A program made the position numbers and the translations under genes. 64,000 nt of DNA from Oscillatoria sp. CS-180 (GTDB lineage: Bacteria; Cyanobacteriota; Cyanobacteriia; Phormidesmidales; Phormidesmidaceae): NCBI RefSeq assembly GCF_028330965.1, contig NZ_JAQMUB010000080.1, positions 1-64,000 of the forward strand. The letters are read 5' to 3'. The notes beneath the pieces are model-generated. The model saw only the letters and a list, made by a program, of their open reading frames with translations. It did not search any database and was not told the origin of the DNA. This document shows positions 29,216 to 39,376 of this stretch, piece after piece. Each line of letters opens with the position of its first letter. The first letter of the stretch is position 1.

Positions 29216-30820
29216 CTACGTCTCTTTTTCGATTAAGGCTTTGAGCTGTTTAACCTGAAAGCTTTCTGCCATGGATATTACGGCATTAGCAAAATCACTG
29301 TACTGAGAATCTAGCTTCTGAACAACCTGGATCAGGGTGTCTAGATCACCTTTTCGAATGAGAGCGTTGAGCTCTATTAAAATTTCAGCGGGCGGTCTTA
29401 TATACACATTTGGCTGAGACACAGTACCTGATTCTTGGGATCGTGCACGGGCTTGATAAATCCAATTCAGTTTGAGGTGTGCCTCAAGGAGGTTCAATAA
29501 CTCTGTTGTCTGTACGGGCTTAGGTAGGAACGCAGAAGCGCCAGCTGCTATGCTCTTGTGCTTGTCTACTTCAAAGACGCTAGCAGAAGAAACAATAACA
29601 GGAATCGCCTTCAAACTGGGGTCACTACGTAAGCTAGCCAGCAACTCGTATCCATCCATGATAGGCATTAGCAAATCGGTAATCACTATATCAGGATAAT
29701 TTAGTCCAATCTGTTCCAGCCCTTGTTTTCCGTCTGGCGCTTCAAGTATTTCAAAACCAACGGGTTCGAGTAGGTTAGCTATGACTGAGCGATTTTCCCA
29801 GCGGTCATCAATAATAAGTACAGTTTGCTTACTTCCTTCGTAGCCGACAACCTGACTTCCACTAGTGTTAACAGGTGGAATATCCCAATCTTCAGTCTCT
29901 GATAGCTCGACTTCAAAGCTGAACACACTACCAACGCCTCTCTGACTTTCAACCTGAAGTTTGCTGCCCATCATTTCGACGATTCGATTGCTGATCGATA
30001 GCCCTAAGCCTGTTCCGCCTTGCTTGCGATCGCTGTCACCAACCTGTTCAAAAGGCAACCATATTTTTTCTATCTGTGCTGGAGTCATTCCTACTCCCGT
30101 GTCTTGGACTTCAAAACGCAGGCGATGGAGATTAGCGTCGGTGTCACTTGCGATTAGGCGTATCCGAAAGTCAACTTGACCATCATCAGTGAATTTAATA
30201 GCGTTCCCAATTAAATTCAGCAAAACTTGTCGCAGTCGCTTTTCATCTGCGATCGCCCCGCAGGGCAAGGCCTCGTCAGCACTGCAATTAAAAATCAAGT
30301 TTTTCTGTTCAGCACGAACACGACAGATTTCAACAAGGCTCTGAATAAAAGAGGGTAAATGGAGAGTAGTGGGATACAACTCCATTTTGTGGGCCTCTAT
30401 TTTAGAGAGGTCGAGGACATCGTTGATCAGAGTCAAAAGATGATTGCCGCATTGATAAATCACATCAAGCCCTTTCTGTCCCTTATCAGAAATGGATTCC
30501 GTACGACTCAAAATTTGGGCGTAGCCTAGGATACCGTTCAGGGGAGTCCGTAATTCATGGCTCATATTGGCAAGGAATTCACTCTTAGCCTCGTTTGCAC
30601 TATCGGCAAGCTTGATGGCCTTTTTGAGCTCAATTTTCGCGTCCTCTGCTTCCTGAATGACCTGCTTGAGCATAGCTTCACGTCGTTGACTTGCTGTCTC
30701 CAGTTCAGCCCTAGTCCGCTCAGAACGAGTCAACTTTTTTTGCAATATTCGGTTCTGCCGTTCCAGCTTAGCGATCTGTTCGGCCAACTCAAGTTCAGGA
30801 GTCTCATCTGCTGAAGACAT
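29216..30820 (-). CDS. Hybrid sensor histidine kinase with receiver domain
   Basis: This 534-residue cytoplasmic kinase opens with a coiled coil (about 8-80). HisKA follows with His88 (FLANMSHELRTPLNG), then the ATPase domain with Asn206 (LLNLIGNAIKF), DTGVGM from Asp240 and GGTGLGLSIS near 268. The receiver has Asp338/Asp339, phospho-Asp382 (ITDLLMP) and Lys434. All catalytic motifs are intact. The 80-residue helical C-terminus is unassigned. It lacks its own sensor domain and lies seven bases after the FIST gene, so FIST is the likely input. Output may pass to the receiver of the next gene. Confidence 0.9.
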   Translation of the reverse strand: MSSADETPELELAEQIAKLERQNRILQKKLTRSERTRAELETASQRREAMLKQVIQEAEDAKIELKKAIKLADSANEAKSEFLANMSHELRTPLNGILGYAQILSRTESISDKGQKGLDVIYQCGNHLLTLINDVLDLSKIEAHKMELYPTTLHLPSFIQSLVEICRVRAEQKNLIFNCSADEALPCGAIADEKRLRQVLLNLIGNAIKFTDDGQVDFRIRLIASDTDANLHRLRFEVQDTGVGMTPAQIEKIWLPFEQVGDSDRKQGGTGLGLSISNRIVEMMGSKLQVESQRGVGSVFSFEVELSETEDWDIPPVNTSGSQVVGYEGSKQTVLIIDDRWENRSVIANLLEPVGFEILEAPDGKQGLEQIGLNYPDIVITDLLMPIMDGYELLASLRSDPSLKAIPVIVSSASVFEVDKHKSIAAGASAFLPKPVQTTELLNLLEAHLKLNWIYQARARSQESGTVSQPNVYIRPPAEILIELNALIRKGDLDTLIQVVQKLDSQYSDFANAVISMAESFQVKQLKALIEKET

Positions 30821-33835: not shown

Positions 33836-36800
33836 TTACGCGGCTTCAGCAGAATTTAGCGTCAGTACTAAATCGTTGAAGTCATTATCTGACAGGTCCT
33901 CGAAGGTCCAGACGGTGCCGTCGCTCTTGATGCGATCGCGCCCCGTCAGAACATCACCGATTGTGGCTAGATTATCCATCTCGCCATCGATCAGCAAGGC
34001 CGGTGCGTAGAACGTACCGCCCATCAGCGTCAGCTCAGCCTCAGTAGAGGTCAGGTTCATGACAAACAACTCGGTATCTAAGAGGTTAGCGGCTACAGCT
34101 TCCTCATAGCCTTCCTCTCCAGGAAGAAGACCACCGACAGTACCCTGCGCGTCTGTCTCATAGAACTTCAGCAAATTGTCGAATAAGGCTTCACGCTCCA
34201 AAGTGACGTTCACAGAAACCTCACCGTCAAAGCCTGTCAGGTCGATGATTTCGCTAGAGAAGGCAGCTTCTTCAGGGGAAACTCCAAAGAGCGTTTCGTA
34301 CATCAGACGATACATATCGGTGTTGTCAGACGTTGCAGGGAGCTGATCCGCATTGAGACCGTATGCTTTGGAGACGATCGCTCCATTCACGTCAGTTAAA
34401 GACGCCCAGGCAACCCCGAAATCGAAGACATCACCATCAGCGTCAGGCGCACCCGTGACGAACGGCTCAAAGTTGCCGTTGTTGCTACCGTCAACGTCGT
34501 CTACTTCGACAGGTGTACCATCAGCAGCATCGCCGAAGGAAACCAGCTCAGATTGGACCCGTAGAGTGTTTTCAGGAACATCGCCAAAGCCACCGAGGGG
34601 CACATCGTCCACTTCCAAACCACCCGCATCGGAGTCAGCAGCCGTTAGGACTAGGGTGTTAGGGTCGGTGTTGTCGACGAAGTCGAGGGCAACTCCGATC
34701 GCTTCATCCGCCCGCAGTGTTGCTTCAATGGTGCCGACTGCGTTGTTATTGTTAGCGAAGTTATCGGAAGCTTCCTCTTCCAGTACCAGGAAGAAGCCAT
34801 CCTCATCCTTGTCAAGGATAGGCAGAGCTACCTCCAGCATTTCAGCCACAGTTGGTGGATTGGGGTTAAGAGGAGGCTGACCGTAAAGGATGATGTCACC
34901 CTCTTCATCTACCAAGCCCTGGGCACGTAGGTTGTCTTCGAAGGTGTCGTTGTAGGTGTCTTCAGCACCGAAGATACCCAACAACATATCTGTTTCGTCA
35001 GTGTCTACAGCCATCAACTGTTCTTTAGTAAAGACAACGGTGTAGCCCATGGCTTCCGCTTCTTCAATCAAGTTGCGACCGTCTTCGCGAGTTCCCTCTT
35101 CACCGAAGAAACCAACGGTGCCAACAGGCAGATAGTCAGTTTCGCCCGCACCCAGGATAACGTCAGCGCCGGATTCAATAATCTCAGCAGTGATGGCTTC
35201 AGTGTCGCGGCGGCTGTCAACGTCTGCGAGGAAAACCCCTGTTCCTGGCTCAGCAATGAAACCAGAGTTGATGATACCGATCGCTTTACCCGCTTCCTGA
35301 GCCTCTTGCATGATGGTGTCAGGCTTACCGGAGAGTGAAACGATTTCTTCTCCACCTTCATCAACAGGCGCATCGAAACCGTAGCTGCCAGCAAAAGGCT
35401 TAACACCATAAGCGTGCACGACTGCACCGGCGTTAGAAGTTGCTACGACGCGATCATCGATGTGACCGAGGTAAACCCCAGCATCACTCATCTGATCCCA
35501 ATTCAGGCGACCATCAGTACCGACAGAAGCAAAACGAGCTGCTGCATAGTGGGAGGGGCTGGTGCCATCGGGGTGGATGAAGATAACGTTGCCGGTATCT
35601 GCAGTGGGATCTGGGGCTTCCCGCTCATCGAGATCATCGGGAACACCCTCAGGTGCATCTAGTTCAACATCGAACAGGTTCTCGTACATCAAGCGGTAGA
35701 TACCTGTGTTATCGATAGTTGCGGGCAATTTATCAGCGCCTTCACCCCAGGCCTTGGTAACAATGCTGCCAGCAAAGTCAGGCAAACCTGCCCAAAGCAC
35801 GCCAAATTCAAAAACGTCGCCATTTTCGTCAGGCTGAGCGACAAAAGGTGCGGTATCGCTGCCAGTAGTCCCGTCATAGGGGATTTCATCGCCCGTAGGC
35901 TCACCGTTCTCATCCAGACGGGCTTGGGCAAAGGTCGTGCCGACAGTTTCGCCAGAGCGATCATCAATTTCTAAGCTACCGCCAGCACTGTCAGCAGCCG
36001 TGATAACGAAGGTGTCGGGATTGACGTTTTCGATGAAGTCGATCGCAACCCCAATGGCTTCATCTGCTCGTAGAGTGGCGTCGATCGCACCCCGTGCATT
36101 GTTGTTGTTGCCAAAGTTATCAGTGCCCTCTTCTTCAAGGACAATCATGAAGCCTTCCTCTTCCTGGCTAAAAACATCCAGGTCAAGAGTGGCTTGGAGC
36201 ATTTCAGCAACTGTTACGGGGTCGGTGTTAAGGGGGGACTGGCCGTAGGTAATCAGTTCACCGTTCTCATCAACGAATCCTTCTTCAATGAGCCTACCTT
36301 CAGGGACATCGTTGTAGGTGTCATCCGCAGCAAAGATGCCCAATACGCGCTCGGTATCGCTGGATAAACTCGCTAACTGTTCGCGAGTGTAGACAACGGT
36401 GTAACCTTCTGCCTCCGCTTCTTCAATAAGGTTGCGACCGTCTTCACGGGTTCCCTCTTCGCCAAAGAAGCCGACGGTGCCCACAGGCAGGTAATCGATC
36501 TCTCCAGCAGCCATGATGACATTGACGCCAGATTCCACGATCTGAGCAGTGATGCCTTCGCGATCGCGGCGACTAACGGCATCCGCCAAGAAGACACCTG
36601 TGCCAGGCTCCGCAACGAAGCCAGAGTTGATAACCGCAGTAGGACGTCCGGCAGCGATCGCCTCTTCCAAAATAGTTGCGTCGTCAGCAGAACCTTCGAC
36701 ATTTTGTCCCTGTAATGCCGCTAGGGAAAGGTAATCCTCACCGTTTTCATCAAAACCATAACTAGGAGCGACAGCCTTGATACCGTAAGCGTGGACAACC

Positions 36801-36976
36801 GCACCTGCATTGGAGGTTGCTACAATCTGGTCGTCAAGGTGTCCAAGATAGACCGAAGACTTAGGAGCTGTATCCCAATTCAGGCGACCGTCTGGACCAA
36901 CAGACTCGAAACGAGCAGCAGCAAAATGAGACGGATCGGCACCATCCGGGTGGATAAATATGACGTTGCTAGGCAT
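33836..36976 (-). CDS. Tandem alkaline-phosphatase-like protein with C-terminal DUF4114 domain
   Basis: Numbered from the frame's first Met at 37051, two alkaline-phosphatase-superfamily copies span about 29-470 and 488-925. Each has IFIHPDG (first metal Asp), VVATSNAGAVVHAYG (nucleophile Ser box), LEEE..DNF.NNNN and VxTAADS. Residues 935-1068 form a DUF4114 domain ending in DLSDNDFNDLVL, common in secreted cyanobacterial proteins. The usual zinc histidines are replaced in both copies (H331-like by Asn; H370-like by Ser). It resembles the atypical large PhoA of Synechococcus. The protein is very acidic with no signal peptide; type I export is inferred. ATG 36976 directly precedes the first domain. 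Confidence 0.75.
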   Translation of the reverse strand: MPSNVIFIHPDGADPSHFAAARFESVGPDGRLNWDTAPKSSVYLGHLDDQIVATSNAGAVVHAYGIKAVAPSYGFDENGEDYLSLAALQGQNVEGSADDATILEEAIAAGRPTAVINSGFVAEPGTGVFLADAVSRRDREGITAQIVESGVNVIMAAGEIDYLPVGTVGFFGEEGTREDGRNLIEEAEAEGYTVVYTREQLASLSSDTERVLGIFAADDTYNDVPEGRLIEEGFVDENGELITYGQSPLNTDPVTVAEMLQATLDLDVFSQEEEGFMIVLEEEGTDNFGNNNNARGAIDATLRADEAIGVAIDFIENVNPDTFVITAADSAGGSLEIDDRSGETVGTTFAQARLDENGEPTGDEIPYDGTTGSDTAPFVAQPDENGDVFEFGVLWAGLPDFAGSIVTKAWGEGADKLPATIDNTGIYRLMYENLFDVELDAPEGVPDDLDEREAPDPTADTGNVIFIHPDGTSPSHYAAARFASVGTDGRLNWDQMSDAGVYLGHIDDRVVATSNAGAVVHAYGVKPFAGSYGFDAPVDEGGEEIVSLSGKPDTIMQEAQEAGKAIGIINSGFIAEPGTGVFLADVDSRRDTEAITAEIIESGADVILGAGETDYLPVGTVGFFGEEGTREDGRNLIEEAEAMGYTVVFTKEQLMAVDTDETDMLLGIFGAEDTYNDTFEDNLRAQGLVDEEGDIILYGQPPLNPNPPTVAEMLEVALPILDKDEDGFFLVLEEEASDNFANNNNAVGTIEATLRADEAIGVALDFVDNTDPNTLVLTAADSDAGGLEVDDVPLGGFGDVPENTLRVQSELVSFGDAADGTPVEVDDVDGSNNGNFEPFVTGAPDADGDVFDFGVAWASLTDVNGAIVSKAYGLNADQLPATSDNTDMYRLMYETLFGVSPEEAAFSSEIIDLTGFDGEVSVNVTLEREALFDNLLKFYETDAQGTVGGLLPGEEGYEEAVAANLLDTELFVMNLTSTEAELTLMGGTFYAPALLIDGEMDNLATIGDVLTGRDRIKSDGTVWTFEDLSDNDFNDLVLTLNSAEAA

Positions 36977-37051
36977 AATTTTTAGCTGACAAATCAACAA
37001 CACACAAACGCATATCGAAAGTCTTTCAGTGTCATCAGAAGCGAAAAACAC

Positions 37052-37675
37052 TACAAAATCTCCTCGATGCTTGACCGTGGAAACCCTTAAATTTGACTTT
37101 CAGTATTGAGGTTTACAGCCTTAAATTATTTAAAGGATGTCTTTTAGTTAAGATGAAATTAATTTTTGGAAGTCTCTTTCAAAGCAGAGAGATTGATATG
37201 ACCCAATAGGAGGACAAATACTTTTCAAGAGCGGCCTCACTTGGGACGAGCCAATCTGACGAGCCAATCTATGGGAGCTTTTTAGATCACTTACAAGCGC
37301 AATATCAACCCTACGAGAGATTGACAATGCTAAGTCATCTCCGCAAGAGCTTGAAATATGCTAGTAATAGTCGAAAGGTATTTAGGTAGGTTTCAGCCCT
37401 GAGCTAACAAATTGAGGGCTGGTGCAGCAATGCCCATGCTATTGGGCTTCTAAAACAAGTTGATGACGTGCTCTAGCGGTCTGTCGGACTTGATAGTGTA
37501 GGTTGGCTTAACATTTGGGAAACCCAACAAAACCGTTTGCAGTGTTAGGTTATCTCCTTCGGAAAGGCTCCGCCAACACTTCGTTCTACCCAACCTACAC
37601 ACACTCCCATTTTTAGCTTTGACAAAGCACTAGGACTGACGTAAATCTTTGGCGCCAGCTAATCACTATGGCTAG
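37052..37675. other. Spacer containing a MITE-like element
   Basis: About 0.62 kb without a gene. A 13-bp direct duplication (GACGAGCCAATCT at 37245-37257 and 37258-37270) and the 105-bp element at 37496-37600 are the only structures seen. Confidence 0.5.
37496..37600. mobile_element. 105-bp MITE-like element with 11-bp terminal inverted repeats
   Basis: The ends GTGTAGGTTGG (37496-37506) and CCAACCTACAC (37590-37600) are perfect inverted repeats. Inside are a short palindrome TTGGGAAACCCAA and no ORF. Elements of this style, GTAGGTTGG...CCAACCTAC with internal AACCCAAC, are widespread in cyanobacterial genomes. The size is right for a non-autonomous miniature transposon moved by a transposase elsewhere. 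No clear target-site duplication was identified. Confidence 0.65.
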
Positions 37676-37888
37676 CTAAACAACACTATCAAACAAAGTA
37701 TCTAAATATATACGGGATGTTGTTTGATCTTTTTTCCCATTCTGCAATAAGAACAAAGATATGGCAGCTGAAAAAACGCGATCTTGATCCCAGCTTGGGT
37801 GGCCATCCAAGAACTCAAATAGTGACTTTTGCAAATCTTCAGGAATTTCAGACAAGATGCAAACGCGACGATACATAAATGCTTCCAA
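37676..37888 (-). CDS. DUF2811 family protein (cyanobacterial conserved)
   Basis: This 70-residue protein matches the small cyanobacterial DUF2811 family as I recall it. Blocks seen: ILSEIPEDLQKSLFEFLD, HPSWDQDRVFSAAISLFLLQNG and RIYLDTLF. It is soluble and helical, of unknown function; the layout (a short strand plus helices) is reminiscent of ribbon-helix-helix-sized proteins, but no DNA-binding claim is made. Met1 or Met5 could be the start. It sits about 500 bases from the DnaA-box cluster. Confidence 0.8.
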   Translation of the reverse strand: MEAFMYRRVCILSEIPEDLQKSLFEFLDGHPSWDQDRVFSAAISLFLLQNGKKDQTTSRIYLDTLFDSVV

Positions 37889-38387
37889 ATTAATTTCTAA
37901 ACGTTTCAGAGCTGTCTATAGCGATCCGATTTGGGCTTTAAATAGGGTCTTCCAAGGAAAACCCTTATTCAAAAAGCCTTCTACTCTCAGAAATCATCTG
38001 AGATGGCTAGATCTTGTGGAACTACAAGCTGGCACAAACTGATCCGCAGATCTTTGCGCTGAGCTTAAATATTCAATCCACAAAAAATTTTTATTCCGTA
38101 GCACCCTATTGATCGAAGAGGTAGCCGTATGAGATTGCGCTTATATCGGACAGTGTTGATATAAAACCCTTCTCAATAACGCCTCTTTCTCAGCATTAGA
38201 AGTAACGCTCAAAACGTTATCTCTGTCAGTCGCTACATTGTGCAGTAAGGGGGGTACGACCTGTCAATAAAACACCTGTATTGCTACTAGTTTAGATTCT
38301 CTTAAGACTTAACGATGTCAAGCAGATTAGAAAGCAATTTGCTTTGCATTTCTTTAAAAAATAGCGATCGCTCGTGACCAGTGAGGC
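37889..38387. other. Spacer on the left flank of the DnaA-box cluster
   Basis: No gene supported. The sequence is AT-rich just left of the DnaA boxes, including TTTCTTTAAAAAATA near 38350 and a small palindrome AAAGCAATTTGCTTT near 38330. A weak inverse-orientation DnaA-like 9-mer (CAATCCACA) lies at 38074-38082. Confidence 0.4.
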
Positions 38388-38504
38388 TGTGGAAATCAAC
38401 TTTTTCTAGTAGCCACAAATAGACAGAACTTCGACGCAAGGGTGTGGATAACCTGTGGAAAAGCCAGTAAATTTGTGGAAAAGCTGCTAATCGACTGTGG
38501 ACAA
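38388..38504 (-). other. Cluster of five DnaA-box-like 9-mers; candidate oriC or DnaA-binding locus
   Basis: On the plus strand the 9-mers are TGTGGAAAT (38388), TGTGGATAA (38443), TGTGGAAAA (38454), TGTGGAAAA (38474) and TGTGGACAA (38496), all in the same orientation. Read on the minus strand they are versions of TTWTCCACA. TTATCCACA is the consensus DnaA box, and TTTTCCACA is the form reported for cyanobacterial origins. Five in 117 bases is far above the scattered single matches elsewhere in the window. dnaA and dnaN are not visible nearby, so a titration or regulatory site is the alternative. Confidence 0.6.
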
Positions 38505-38650: not shown

Positions 38651-39376
38651 TTATGCAACGAGGGCGGCTAGTCCTAAATAACGGATCTCAGTAGGTGTGA
38701 CTTCAAAACGGCAGGGAAGGACCTCTAATCCCTGTGCGATCGCTTTGCGCAGCAGCGTTCCATAAACTGGATCAGCTTTGTCTCCAGGTGCAAACGTGAT
38801 GCAGTCTCCACGGTTGATGAAATAGAGCATAATGGCACGGGCATCTGGTAGAAGCGCAGTGAGTTCCTGTAAGTGCTTCTGTCCGCGAGTGGTAACCGTA
38901 TCAGGAAAAAGAGCCAGAGTTCCATCGGCCCAGGTGGTGTTCTTCACTTCGACATAGATCGGGCGCCCATCTTCACCTTTCAGCAAGAAATCGATGCGGC
39001 TTTTGCCCTCTTTGCCGTACTTCACTTCAGGTCGAATCTCACTGTAAGCTCCCAATTCTGAAATGACGTTGGCGGCTAACACTGATTTGACGACACGATT
39101 AGGTAAGGCCGTATTCGTTCCAACCCAAGTGGGAACGGTGTCATGAACTTCTGTCAGTTCCCAAGTGTAGGCTAGCTTGCGTTTGGGACTGGGATTGTGG
39201 GAAACCATCACTCGTCCATCTACGTGACAGACTCCTGTCATGGGGCCAGTGTTAGGGCAGTGGGCTGTAATAACTTCGCCGGAATCAAGTTCTATATCAG
39301 CTAAGAATCGCTTGTAGCGCTTCAGCAATTTACCGGGATAAAGCATCGGCAAAGCATACGACCAATTTTCTTTCAT
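38651..39376 (-). CDS. sfsA: DNA/RNA-binding nuclease-like protein SfsA
   Basis: SfsA (sugar fermentation stimulation protein) is a conserved nucleic-acid-binding protein with an OB-like N-terminus and a restriction-nuclease-like C-terminal fold. Motifs: LYPGKLLKRYKRFLADIEL, HCPNTGPMTG, the nuclease-like core GKEGKSRIDFLL followed by IYVEVKNTTW, FPDTVTTRGQKHL, and CITFAPGDKADPVYG. The 241-residue length is normal. ATG 39376. Monocistronic. The DnaA-box cluster lies about 150 bases beyond its 3' end. Confidence 0.9.
   Translation of the reverse strand: MKENWSYALPMLYPGKLLKRYKRFLADIELDSGEVITAHCPNTGPMTGVCHVDGRVMVSHNPSPKRKLAYTWELTEVHDTVPTWVGTNTALPNRVVKSVLAANVISELGAYSEIRPEVKYGKEGKSRIDFLLKGEDGRPIYVEVKNTTWADGTLALFPDTVTTRGQKHLQELTALLPDARAIMLYFINRGDCITFAPGDKADPVYGTLLRKAIAQGLEVLPCRFEVTPTEIRYLGLAALVA

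What the first reader, a model, noticed from the sequence alone, without database searches (positions are those of the whole stretch)
38388..38504. Five same-orientation DnaA-box-like sites in 117 bp beside sfsA: candidate oriC or DnaA titration locus
The plus strand shows TGTGGAAAT, TGTGGATAA, TGTGGAAAA, TGTGGAAAA and TGTGGACAA at 38388, 38443, 38454, 38474 and 38496. One is a perfect consensus DnaA box and two match the TTTTCCACA form linked to cyanobacterial origins. An AT-rich segment lies directly to the left. Against a simple origin: no dnaA or dnaN is nearby and gene orientation does not flip clearly around the site. A DnaA-binding regulatory site is therefore also possible.
Basis: partly seen in the sequence, partly recalled or inferred. 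Interest (0 to 1): 0.7.

Follow-up and report, generated by a model that had tools for sequence, protein, structure and literature searches.

The report
DnaA-box switch upstream of DUF2811 gene
The five sites are probably not the chromosome's replication start: they form a row of DnaA-type sites found across cyanobacteria at a nearly fixed distance before the promoter of a small gene of unknown function, and both sites and gene tend to be missing where the replication protein DnaA has been lost.

Summary
The five DnaA boxes are real; 0 of 300 simulated windows matched them. They are probably not oriC: dnaN, on another contig, has its own two-strand box cluster. Nor are they tied to sfsA. They lie upstream of an overlooked 66-codon gene, window 37676-37876 (-), Pfam DUF2811. 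In 97 of 101 dnaA+ cyanobacterial genomes a DUF2811 gene has at least one phased box pair upstream on its own strand; on the opposite strand, 0 of 136 genes do. In 92 of 113 testable genes a -35-like hexamer starts 171-177 bp after the last box. Three lines point to DnaA: two genomes whose oriC uses TTATCC boxes use them in the array too; DUF2811 is found in 101 of 102 dnaA+ genomes but intact in only 10 of 59 without detected dnaA; of those ten, the five near-complete genomes have lost or reduced arrays but keep a TTGACA. Best reading: a conserved DnaA-controlled promoter. Binding, expression and protein function are untested.

The parts
38496..38504 (-). DnaA box 1 of the tandem array, TTGTCCACA
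   Evidence: one mismatch to TTWTCCACA
38474..38482 (-). DnaA box 2, TTTTCCACA (22 bp from box 1)
   Evidence: the 22-bp step recurs in relatives
38454..38462 (-). DnaA box 3, TTTTCCACA (20 bp from box 2)
38443..38451 (-). DnaA box 4, TTATCCACA (11 bp from box 3, so 2 bp between the boxes); last box of the tandem array
   Evidence: a 2-3 bp gap is the preferred pair spacing of E. coli DnaA (PMC11317965, abstract and passages)
38388..38396 (-). outlying DnaA box 5, ATTTCCACA, 55 bp further on; a box 54-64 bp beyond the array is also seen in the same-genus loci L150-L154 and in L155 (G012)
38316..38321 (-). upstream TTGACA; possible second promoter, 54 bp before the main -35
   Evidence: sequence; some relatives (e.g. 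L150, L152, L155, L162) show a second TTGAC[AT] 53 bp upstream
38262..38267 (-). -35 hexamer TTGACA of the conserved promoter-like site, 175 bp after the last tandem box
   Evidence: sequence; 92 of 113 DUF2811 genes have a TTG[AG]C[AT] at 171-177 bp
38237..38242 (-). putative -10, CACAAT, 19 bp after the -35
   Evidence: my reading of the sequence; consensus CATTGACAa.cCc.ccccct..tagc..Aaaat
37676..37876 (-). DUF2811 gene (66 aa, ATG at 37876, stop codon included); leader of about 360 nt if the promoter above is used
   Evidence: Pfam PF10929, E 1.3e-25, 89.9 bits against a cut-off of 26.6
38651..39376 (-). sfsA, upstream neighbour; no functional link seen

Best explanation
The five boxes are a DnaA-binding operator for the DUF2811 gene. 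DnaA assembles head to tail on same-strand boxes spaced 11 and 20-22 bp apart, hence on one face of the helix. It acts on a promoter whose -35 sits about 174 bp further on, so DUF2811 transcription follows the amount or nucleotide state of DnaA. Shown by sequence comparison: the array, its strand and phasing, the nearly fixed distance to the promoter-like site, the box type shared with oriC, and the absence or reduction of boxes and gene in genomes without detected dnaA. Inferred: that DnaA binds here in the cell, that binding changes transcription, and the sign of the effect (I lean slightly to activation). What the DUF2811 protein does is unknown; my guess is a small helical protein that links replication status to other physiology.
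For: (1) Of 136 DUF2811 genes in 101 dnaA+ genomes, 122 have at least one phased pair (steps of 10-12 or 20-23 bp, up to one mismatch per box) within 800 bp upstream on the gene's strand; per genome 97 of 101, and 82 of 101 have a run of three or more. On the opposite strand 0 of 136 genes have such a pair; 60 shuffled motifs averaged 0.43 genes (maximum 14). (2) Of 90 upstream regions, 72 hold at least three same-strand boxes on the gene's strand and none only on the other; 291 shuffled motifs averaged 0.18 regions (one outlier of 39, next 3). (3) A TTG[AG]C[AT] starts 171-177 bp after the last tandem box in 92 of 113 genes (hexamer nearest 174 chosen; about 0.014 expected per gene); counted without that choice it is still 92, while no other 7-bp window from 31 to 240 bp exceeds 9. 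(4) The four f16 genomes whose dnaN region was read use TTATCCACA/TTATCCCCA there; the two of them whose array was read use the same type, and they are the only 2 of 101 genomes whose arrays hold more TTAT than TTTT boxes. (5) DUF2811 is found in 101 of 102 dnaA+ genomes but is intact in 10 of 59 with no dnaA found, with 3 more as pseudogenes; in those at least 98% complete, 5 of 44. Fisher p 5e-30 and 9e-29, both against all 102 dnaA+ genomes and not corrected for kinship. Within one order and one call: 25 of 25 against 3 of 21. (6) The five near-complete dnaA-less genomes with an intact DUF2811 gene have no array (G159, G345, G480), one exact box (G443) or one exact plus two one-mismatch boxes (G412); a TTGACA lies upstream of the gene in all five. 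(7) Plasmid copies of named Acaryochloris and Nostoc carry the array (5 of the 6 read, out of 13 records found).
Against: No binding or expression data. Four dnaA+ genomes lack a phased pair (G018, G047, G043, G094). Of the ten genomes with no dnaA found but an intact gene, five are 85-95% complete: one of these (G383) has no boxes, but four (G423, G469, G536, G269) keep a pair or array, as does G031 (61% complete, left out of the tables). I take dnaA to be unassembled in these, and G269's sister G289 has it, but this is not proven. Counting all ten, 5 of 10 keep a pair against 97 of 101 (p 2e-4); near-complete only, 1 of 5 (p 7e-5). In 21 of 113 genes the hexamer lies outside 171-177 bp (118 bp in f16), and nine more genes with arrays have none. 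Plasmid pLBA and one IMG/VR copy lack boxes. Several genomes keep DUF2811 without dnaA, so the protein is not useful only with DnaA. dnaA knock-outs in three strains grow normally under optimal conditions and DnaA was below detection in Synechocystis PCC 6803 under such conditions (PMC7198777, Discussion), so the circuit would not be essential there.
Confidence: 0.8

Rival explanations
1. The array is mainly a DnaA titration or activity-setting site (like datA, DARS or B. subtilis DnaA-box clusters) that merely sits near DUF2811.
For: A dense, conserved array away from dnaN; several copies in some species (G020: four DUF2811 copies with arrays). One orphan three-box array in L054, beside sfsA with no DUF2811 seen behind it, would fit titration or be a relic.
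Against: The array accompanies DUF2811 genes in different places, keeps their strand (0 of 136 on the other strand) and keeps a nearly fixed distance to a promoter-like hexamer; a pure titration site needs none of this.
Confidence: 0.12
2. The boxes are read by the DUF2811 protein itself (autoregulation; its sequence suggests to me a ribbon-helix-helix protein) or by another factor, not by DnaA.
For: Direct repeats at one-turn spacing are typical of such repressors (recalled); paralogues keep the array.
Against: Same 9-mer as at dnaN, including the TTATCC form of family f16; in G159, G345 and G480 (and in the 85% complete G383) DUF2811 is intact and dnaA not found, and the boxes are absent. 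Structure models are poor (pLDDT about 65) and match nothing significant.
Confidence: 0.05
3. The array is a replication origin (oriC or a secondary origin).
For: Several consensus boxes and somewhat AT-rich flanks.
Against: A separate cluster lies upstream of dnaN here and in 14 of 20 dnaA+ dnaN loci with at least one exact box; the DUF2811 array is one-stranded, tied to a promoter-like site, and present in several copies in some genomes. Coarse GC skew in G005 gives no support.
Confidence: 0.03

Closest known systems
DnaA-activated sda promoter of Bacillus subtilis (PMC4447404, passages)
   Same: A DnaA-box array away from oriC upstream of a small-protein gene (small size recalled); DnaA directly activates sda.
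   Different: Sda inhibits activation of Spo0A (same passages). DUF2811 is not shown to be related; the 174-bp geometry and joint loss with dnaA are what was seen here; regulation is untested.
E. coli double DnaA boxes found by ChIP-seq (PMC11317965, abstract and passages)
   Same: Pairs of boxes 2 or 3 bp apart are preferred by DnaA; boxes 3 and 4 in the window have a 2-bp gap.
   Different: Here typically several boxes in one array, upstream of one conserved gene.
Cyanobacterial oriC beside dnaN, TTTTCCACA boxes (PMC4674748, passages)
   Same: Same box sequence.
   Different: The dnaN-side clusters read here have boxes on both strands; this array is one-stranded and before DUF2811.
datA / DARS DnaA-control loci of E. 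coli (recalled; titles and starts of abstracts)
   Same: DnaA-box clusters away from oriC.
   Different: No conserved promoter geometry is known to me for them; IHF or Fis dependence was not tested here.

Membership tests
DnaA-regulated promoters (DnaA as transcription factor) | Consensus DnaA boxes near a promoter, conserved with it | tested here: met
   Phased pair in 97 of 101 dnaA+ genomes; hexamer at 171-177 bp in 92 of 113 genes
DnaA-regulated promoters (DnaA as transcription factor) | Same recognition sequence as oriC of the same organism | tested here: met
   TTATCC form in both in f16 (two genomes with both read); TTTTCC form prevails in the other arrays and at dnaN
DnaA-regulated promoters (DnaA as transcription factor) | Sites depend on the presence of dnaA | tested here: inconclusive
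   Lost or reduced in all five near-complete dnaA-less genomes with an intact gene and in G383; kept in four less complete ones and in G031. Supportive, but dnaA absence is by a search threshold
DnaA-regulated promoters (DnaA as transcription factor) | DnaA binding and a transcription change on dnaA depletion | not testable with these tools
   Needs EMSA, ChIP and expression data
Chromosomal origin (oriC) | Location by dnaA/dnaN | tested here: not met
   dnaA on C37, dnaN on C44 with its own cluster; the draft assembly does not give the distances
Chromosomal origin (oriC) | GC-skew turning point | tested here: inconclusive
   Forty 20-kb samples of G005 give an irregular profile
datA/DARS-like DnaA control locus | Changes the ATP- or ADP-DnaA balance, with IHF/Fis sites | not testable with these tools
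   No assay; IHF/Fis sites were not scanned
Pfam PF10929 (DUF2811), for the gene | Score above Pfam's gathering cut-off | tested here: met
   89.9 bits against 26.6
Ribbon-helix-helix DNA-binding proteins, for DUF2811 | Recognisable RHH profile or fold | tested here: inconclusive
   No Pfam RHH match; models of low confidence, no significant PDB match

The most novel reading that the evidence does not exclude
Control of DUF2811 is a retained job of DnaA in cyanobacteria. A class-wide DnaA-to-small-protein circuit, like the B. subtilis DnaA-Sda checkpoint in logic, would have outlived DnaA's role as replication initiator in lineages that replicate without it, and would collapse (boxes, then often the gene) once dnaA itself is lost.
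Probability: 0.5. Interest if true: 0.9.

Novelty: new variant of a known kind. Interest (0 to 1): 0.78.

Why it matters
[quoted passage not shown] This finding names a concrete, conserved candidate target with a simple test; whether those three strains carry the array was not checked here. It also gives the uncharacterised DUF2811 family a functional context: a gene whose presence tracks dnaA through repeated losses. Finally, it warns that box clusters in cyanobacteria may mark DUF2811 promoters and not origins.

Tried and rejected
Candidate oriC: rejected, see Membership tests. sfsA as the partner: rejected, because 16 of 30 sfsA loci had the cluster and 3 of 80 in a wider scan (two of the three look like records already seen), while arrays occur before DUF2811 genes away from sfsA. 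Structured RNA: Rfam gave three sub-threshold hits, none on the boxes. Fold of DUF2811: two AlphaFold2 jobs (pLDDT 65.2 and 65.7), Foldseek best E 3.7, profile search of PDB best E 0.67, Pfam at E up to 10 gave no convincing family besides DUF2811; no fold assigned. An upstream TTTGCAATTCTTAT-like block (a related pattern set matches 61 of 152 DUF2811 regions) was looked for at origins: 1 of 28 dnaN loci had it, so it is not a shared origin motif. GC skew of G005 from 40 samples was uninformative. DUF2811 in phage records: no match; in IMG/VR one locus, without boxes. Literature: no held paper contains 'DUF2811' or 'PF10929'; 'sfsA' with 'DnaA box' gave one unrelated paper; the listings (some capped) showed no title or abstract start about this array. 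Subscription papers and preprints are not held, so absence from print is not proven.

Rows and choices: dnaA absence means 'no PF00308 match at E <= 1e-20', so fragments or pseudogenes of dnaA would be missed. Of its 59 genomes without a match, 20 were listed and 39 deduced from missing handle numbers (38 plus G153); the totals agree. G031 (61% complete, dnaA not found, DUF2811 present) was left out of the tables. DUF2811 was sought with the window protein and with PF10929, so the dnaA+ and dnaA-less sets were not all searched the same way. Four sub-cut-off matches (G263, G281, G331, G346) were counted as absent. The 98% completeness cut was applied to dnaA-less genomes only. 30 further DUF2811 hits came as loci, 60 were fetched, and the weakest paralogues, mostly of genus g2, were not read. 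The 152 upstream regions include G159's gene twice (L258, L287). P values ignore kinship; families f30, f32, f33, f34, f47 and f51 contain both dnaA+ and dnaA-less rows, so several losses are likely. My first grouping put G383 (85% complete) with the complete genomes; one search gives both other groupings. For G280 and G300 the dnaA neighbourhood was not located; for G330 and G089 no box cluster was seen by dnaA or dnaN in the stretches read, G330 having three scattered one-mismatch sites.

Full report
OBSERVATION. The five sites are present at the stated coordinates. On the minus strand they read, in transcription order, TTGTCCACA (38496), TTTTCCACA (38474), TTTTCCACA (38454), TTATCCACA (38443) and ATTTCCACA (38388). 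Five such sites on one strand within 117 bp were not reached in 300 simulated windows.

NOT THE ORIGIN. The window is contig C20 of a 6.5-Mb draft genome in 102 contigs. dnaA lies on C37 and dnaN on C44. Upstream of dnaN is a cluster of seven boxes, four of them exact, on both strands, a common cyanobacterial place for oriC (PMC4674748, passages). In the same-genus genome G005, dnaA, dnaN and a two-strand cluster lie near 3.61 Mb while the array's DUF2811 gene lies near 2.07 Mb.

WHAT IT BELONGS TO. In relatives a cluster with similar spacing follows sfsA in 16 of 30 loci; in a wider scan it was seen in 3 of 80 loci, among them Leptolyngbya sp. Heron Island J (L073). Reading further downstream showed a conserved promoter-like site and a 66-codon gene. 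That gene is DUF2811, PF10929. DUF2811 occurs in 58 of 59 genomes from 24 families, own genome included. Upstream regions hold the array whether or not sfsA is near. Of 90 regions, 72 have at least three boxes on the gene's strand and none has such a cluster only on the other; 291 shuffled motifs averaged 0.18. Over 136 genes of 101 dnaA+ genomes, 122 have a phased pair on the gene's strand and 0 on the opposite strand; 60 shuffled motifs averaged 0.43 genes.

GEOMETRY. A typical full array reads TTTTCCCCA-11-TATTCCACA-11-NTTTCCACA-22-TTTTCCACA-21-TTTTCCACA (start-to-start steps; e.g. L170, L171), so boxes fall on one helix face; many genes keep only part of it. In 113 genes with both a tandem pair and a TTG[AG]C[AT] hexamer, a hexamer begins 171-177 bp after the last box in 92, with a mode of 174. 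The best of the other 7-bp windows between 31 and 240 bp holds 9. Nine more genes with a pair have no such hexamer. In the window the distance is 175 bp. The consensus around the hexamer is CATTGACAa.cCc.ccccct..tagc..Aaaat, and a second block (Aag.ta.gtaAcaaaaaa....ct.AAA.cCt.att..ttcGT) precedes it. A spacing this rigid suggests joint action of array and promoter, for instance through a wrapped or looped DnaA complex; this step is inference.

WHO READS IT. Family f16 (G050, G068, G080, G092) has TTATCCACA and TTATCCCCA upstream of dnaN. Its two genomes with an array read (G050, G068) have the same type there, and they are the only 2 of 101 genomes whose arrays hold more TTAT than TTTT boxes; over all arrays the count is 317 TTTT to 23 TTAT. 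The same protein should therefore read both places, and at oriC that protein is DnaA.

NATURAL KNOCK-OUTS. In a class-wide sample 3 of 241 genomes lack a dnaA match; in the order of G165 it is 59 of 387. DUF2811 is intact in 10 of these 59, a pseudogene with in-frame stops in 3 (G404, G516, G594), and not found above the cut-off in 46. In dnaA+ genomes it is found in 101 of 102 (57 of 58; 19 of 19; 25 of 25); the one miss, G025, is 78% complete. Among dnaA-less genomes at least 98% complete, 5 of 44 have it intact (my count; tests). The ten that keep the gene are informative. Five are near-complete: G159, G345 and G480 have no array, G443 has one exact box with scattered one-mismatch sites, G412 has one exact and two one-mismatch boxes at array-like spacing. 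A TTGACA lies upstream of the gene in all five, and also in G383. Five are 85-95% complete: G383 has no boxes, while G423, G469, G536 and G269 keep a pair or array; G289, sister of G269 with a very similar upstream region, has dnaA. A phased pair is kept by 97 of 101 dnaA+ genomes, by 1 of the 5 near-complete dnaA-less genomes (G412), and by 5 of all ten.

ARRAY WITHOUT A VISIBLE ORIGIN. Of ten dnaA-less genomes searched for dnaN, eight gave a locus and all eight have no exact box within 1.5 kb upstream; two (G153, G345) gave no match. Among 20 dnaA+ dnaN loci, six have no exact box. In two of these (G052, G182) boxes lie by dnaA instead (11 and 4 sites in 400 bp); in G330 and G089 no cluster was seen in the stretches read. 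G330, and also G280 and G300 of the same family, nevertheless keep DUF2811 arrays with three exact boxes each. This fits the idea that the array can outlive a recognisable origin, though an origin elsewhere is not excluded.

MECHANISM AND RIVALS. I commit to DnaA-controlled transcription of DUF2811 (0.8). The nearest working analogue is sda of B. subtilis, which DnaA activates from a box array (PMC4447404, passages). E. coli DnaA prefers boxes 2-3 bp apart (PMC11317965, abstract and passages), as in boxes 3 and 4 here. Titration is possible in addition (0.12 as the main role). The protein's own function is open: models are poor and no fold or homologue was found. The ribbon-helix-helix idea is my reading of the sequence and has no tool support.

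NOVELTY. DnaA as a transcription factor is known, and so are cyanobacterial DnaA boxes. I found no paper on DUF2811 nor, in the listings seen, on this array in the held library. Joint loss with dnaA and the nearly fixed promoter geometry make it a new variant of a known kind. It bears on the stated open question of what DnaA does where it is not needed for replication (PMC7198777; abstract, sections 14 and 18 read). That paper itself names transcription control as a possibility in general terms and notes that it would not be essential in the three strains tested.

Noticed in passing
L034:9352-9654 (own genome C45, about 30352-30654): Five box-like sites (3 exact TTTTCCACA) lie inside an ORF (L034 8889-9962, -) that looks to me like a plasmid replication or winged-helix protein, on a 32-kb contig; possibly a plasmid origin inside its own initiator gene.
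   Followed up: no
window 37490-37692: Imperfect inverted repeat (19-nt arms, 84%) with GTAGGTTGG motifs at and after the end of the DUF2811 gene; looks like a small mobile repeat.
   Followed up: no
window 33836-37051 (-): 1071-aa ORF with two tandem halves, each with a VIFIHPDG motif; phosphatase-like by eye.
   Followed up: no
L054:2299-2351 (G020): Three perfect TTTTCCACA boxes after sfsA with no DUF2811 gene seen behind them; an orphan array in a genome with four DUF2811 copies elsewhere.
   Followed up: partly
genomes G153 and G345: No PF00712 (dnaN) match at E <= 0.001 although both are rated 99% complete; both also lack a dnaA match.
   Followed up: no
genomes G018, G047, G043, G094: dnaA+ genomes whose DUF2811 genes have no phased box pair; natural exceptions worth testing.
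   Followed up: no
L347-L352 (plasmids of Acaryochloris, Nostoc, Leptolyngbya boryana): DUF2811 genes on large plasmids; 5 of 6 read have the array, the L. boryana pLBA copy beside a J-domain gene does not.
   Followed up: partly
L346 (IMG/VR contig): A DUF2811 gene on a contig classed as viral, without boxes in the 1 kb upstream.
   Followed up: no
upstream of DUF2811 arrays in many genomes, e.g. L258 about 320 bp before the gene: Conserved TTTGCAATTCTTAT-like block before the first box, kept in G159 where the boxes are gone; function unknown.
   Followed up: partly
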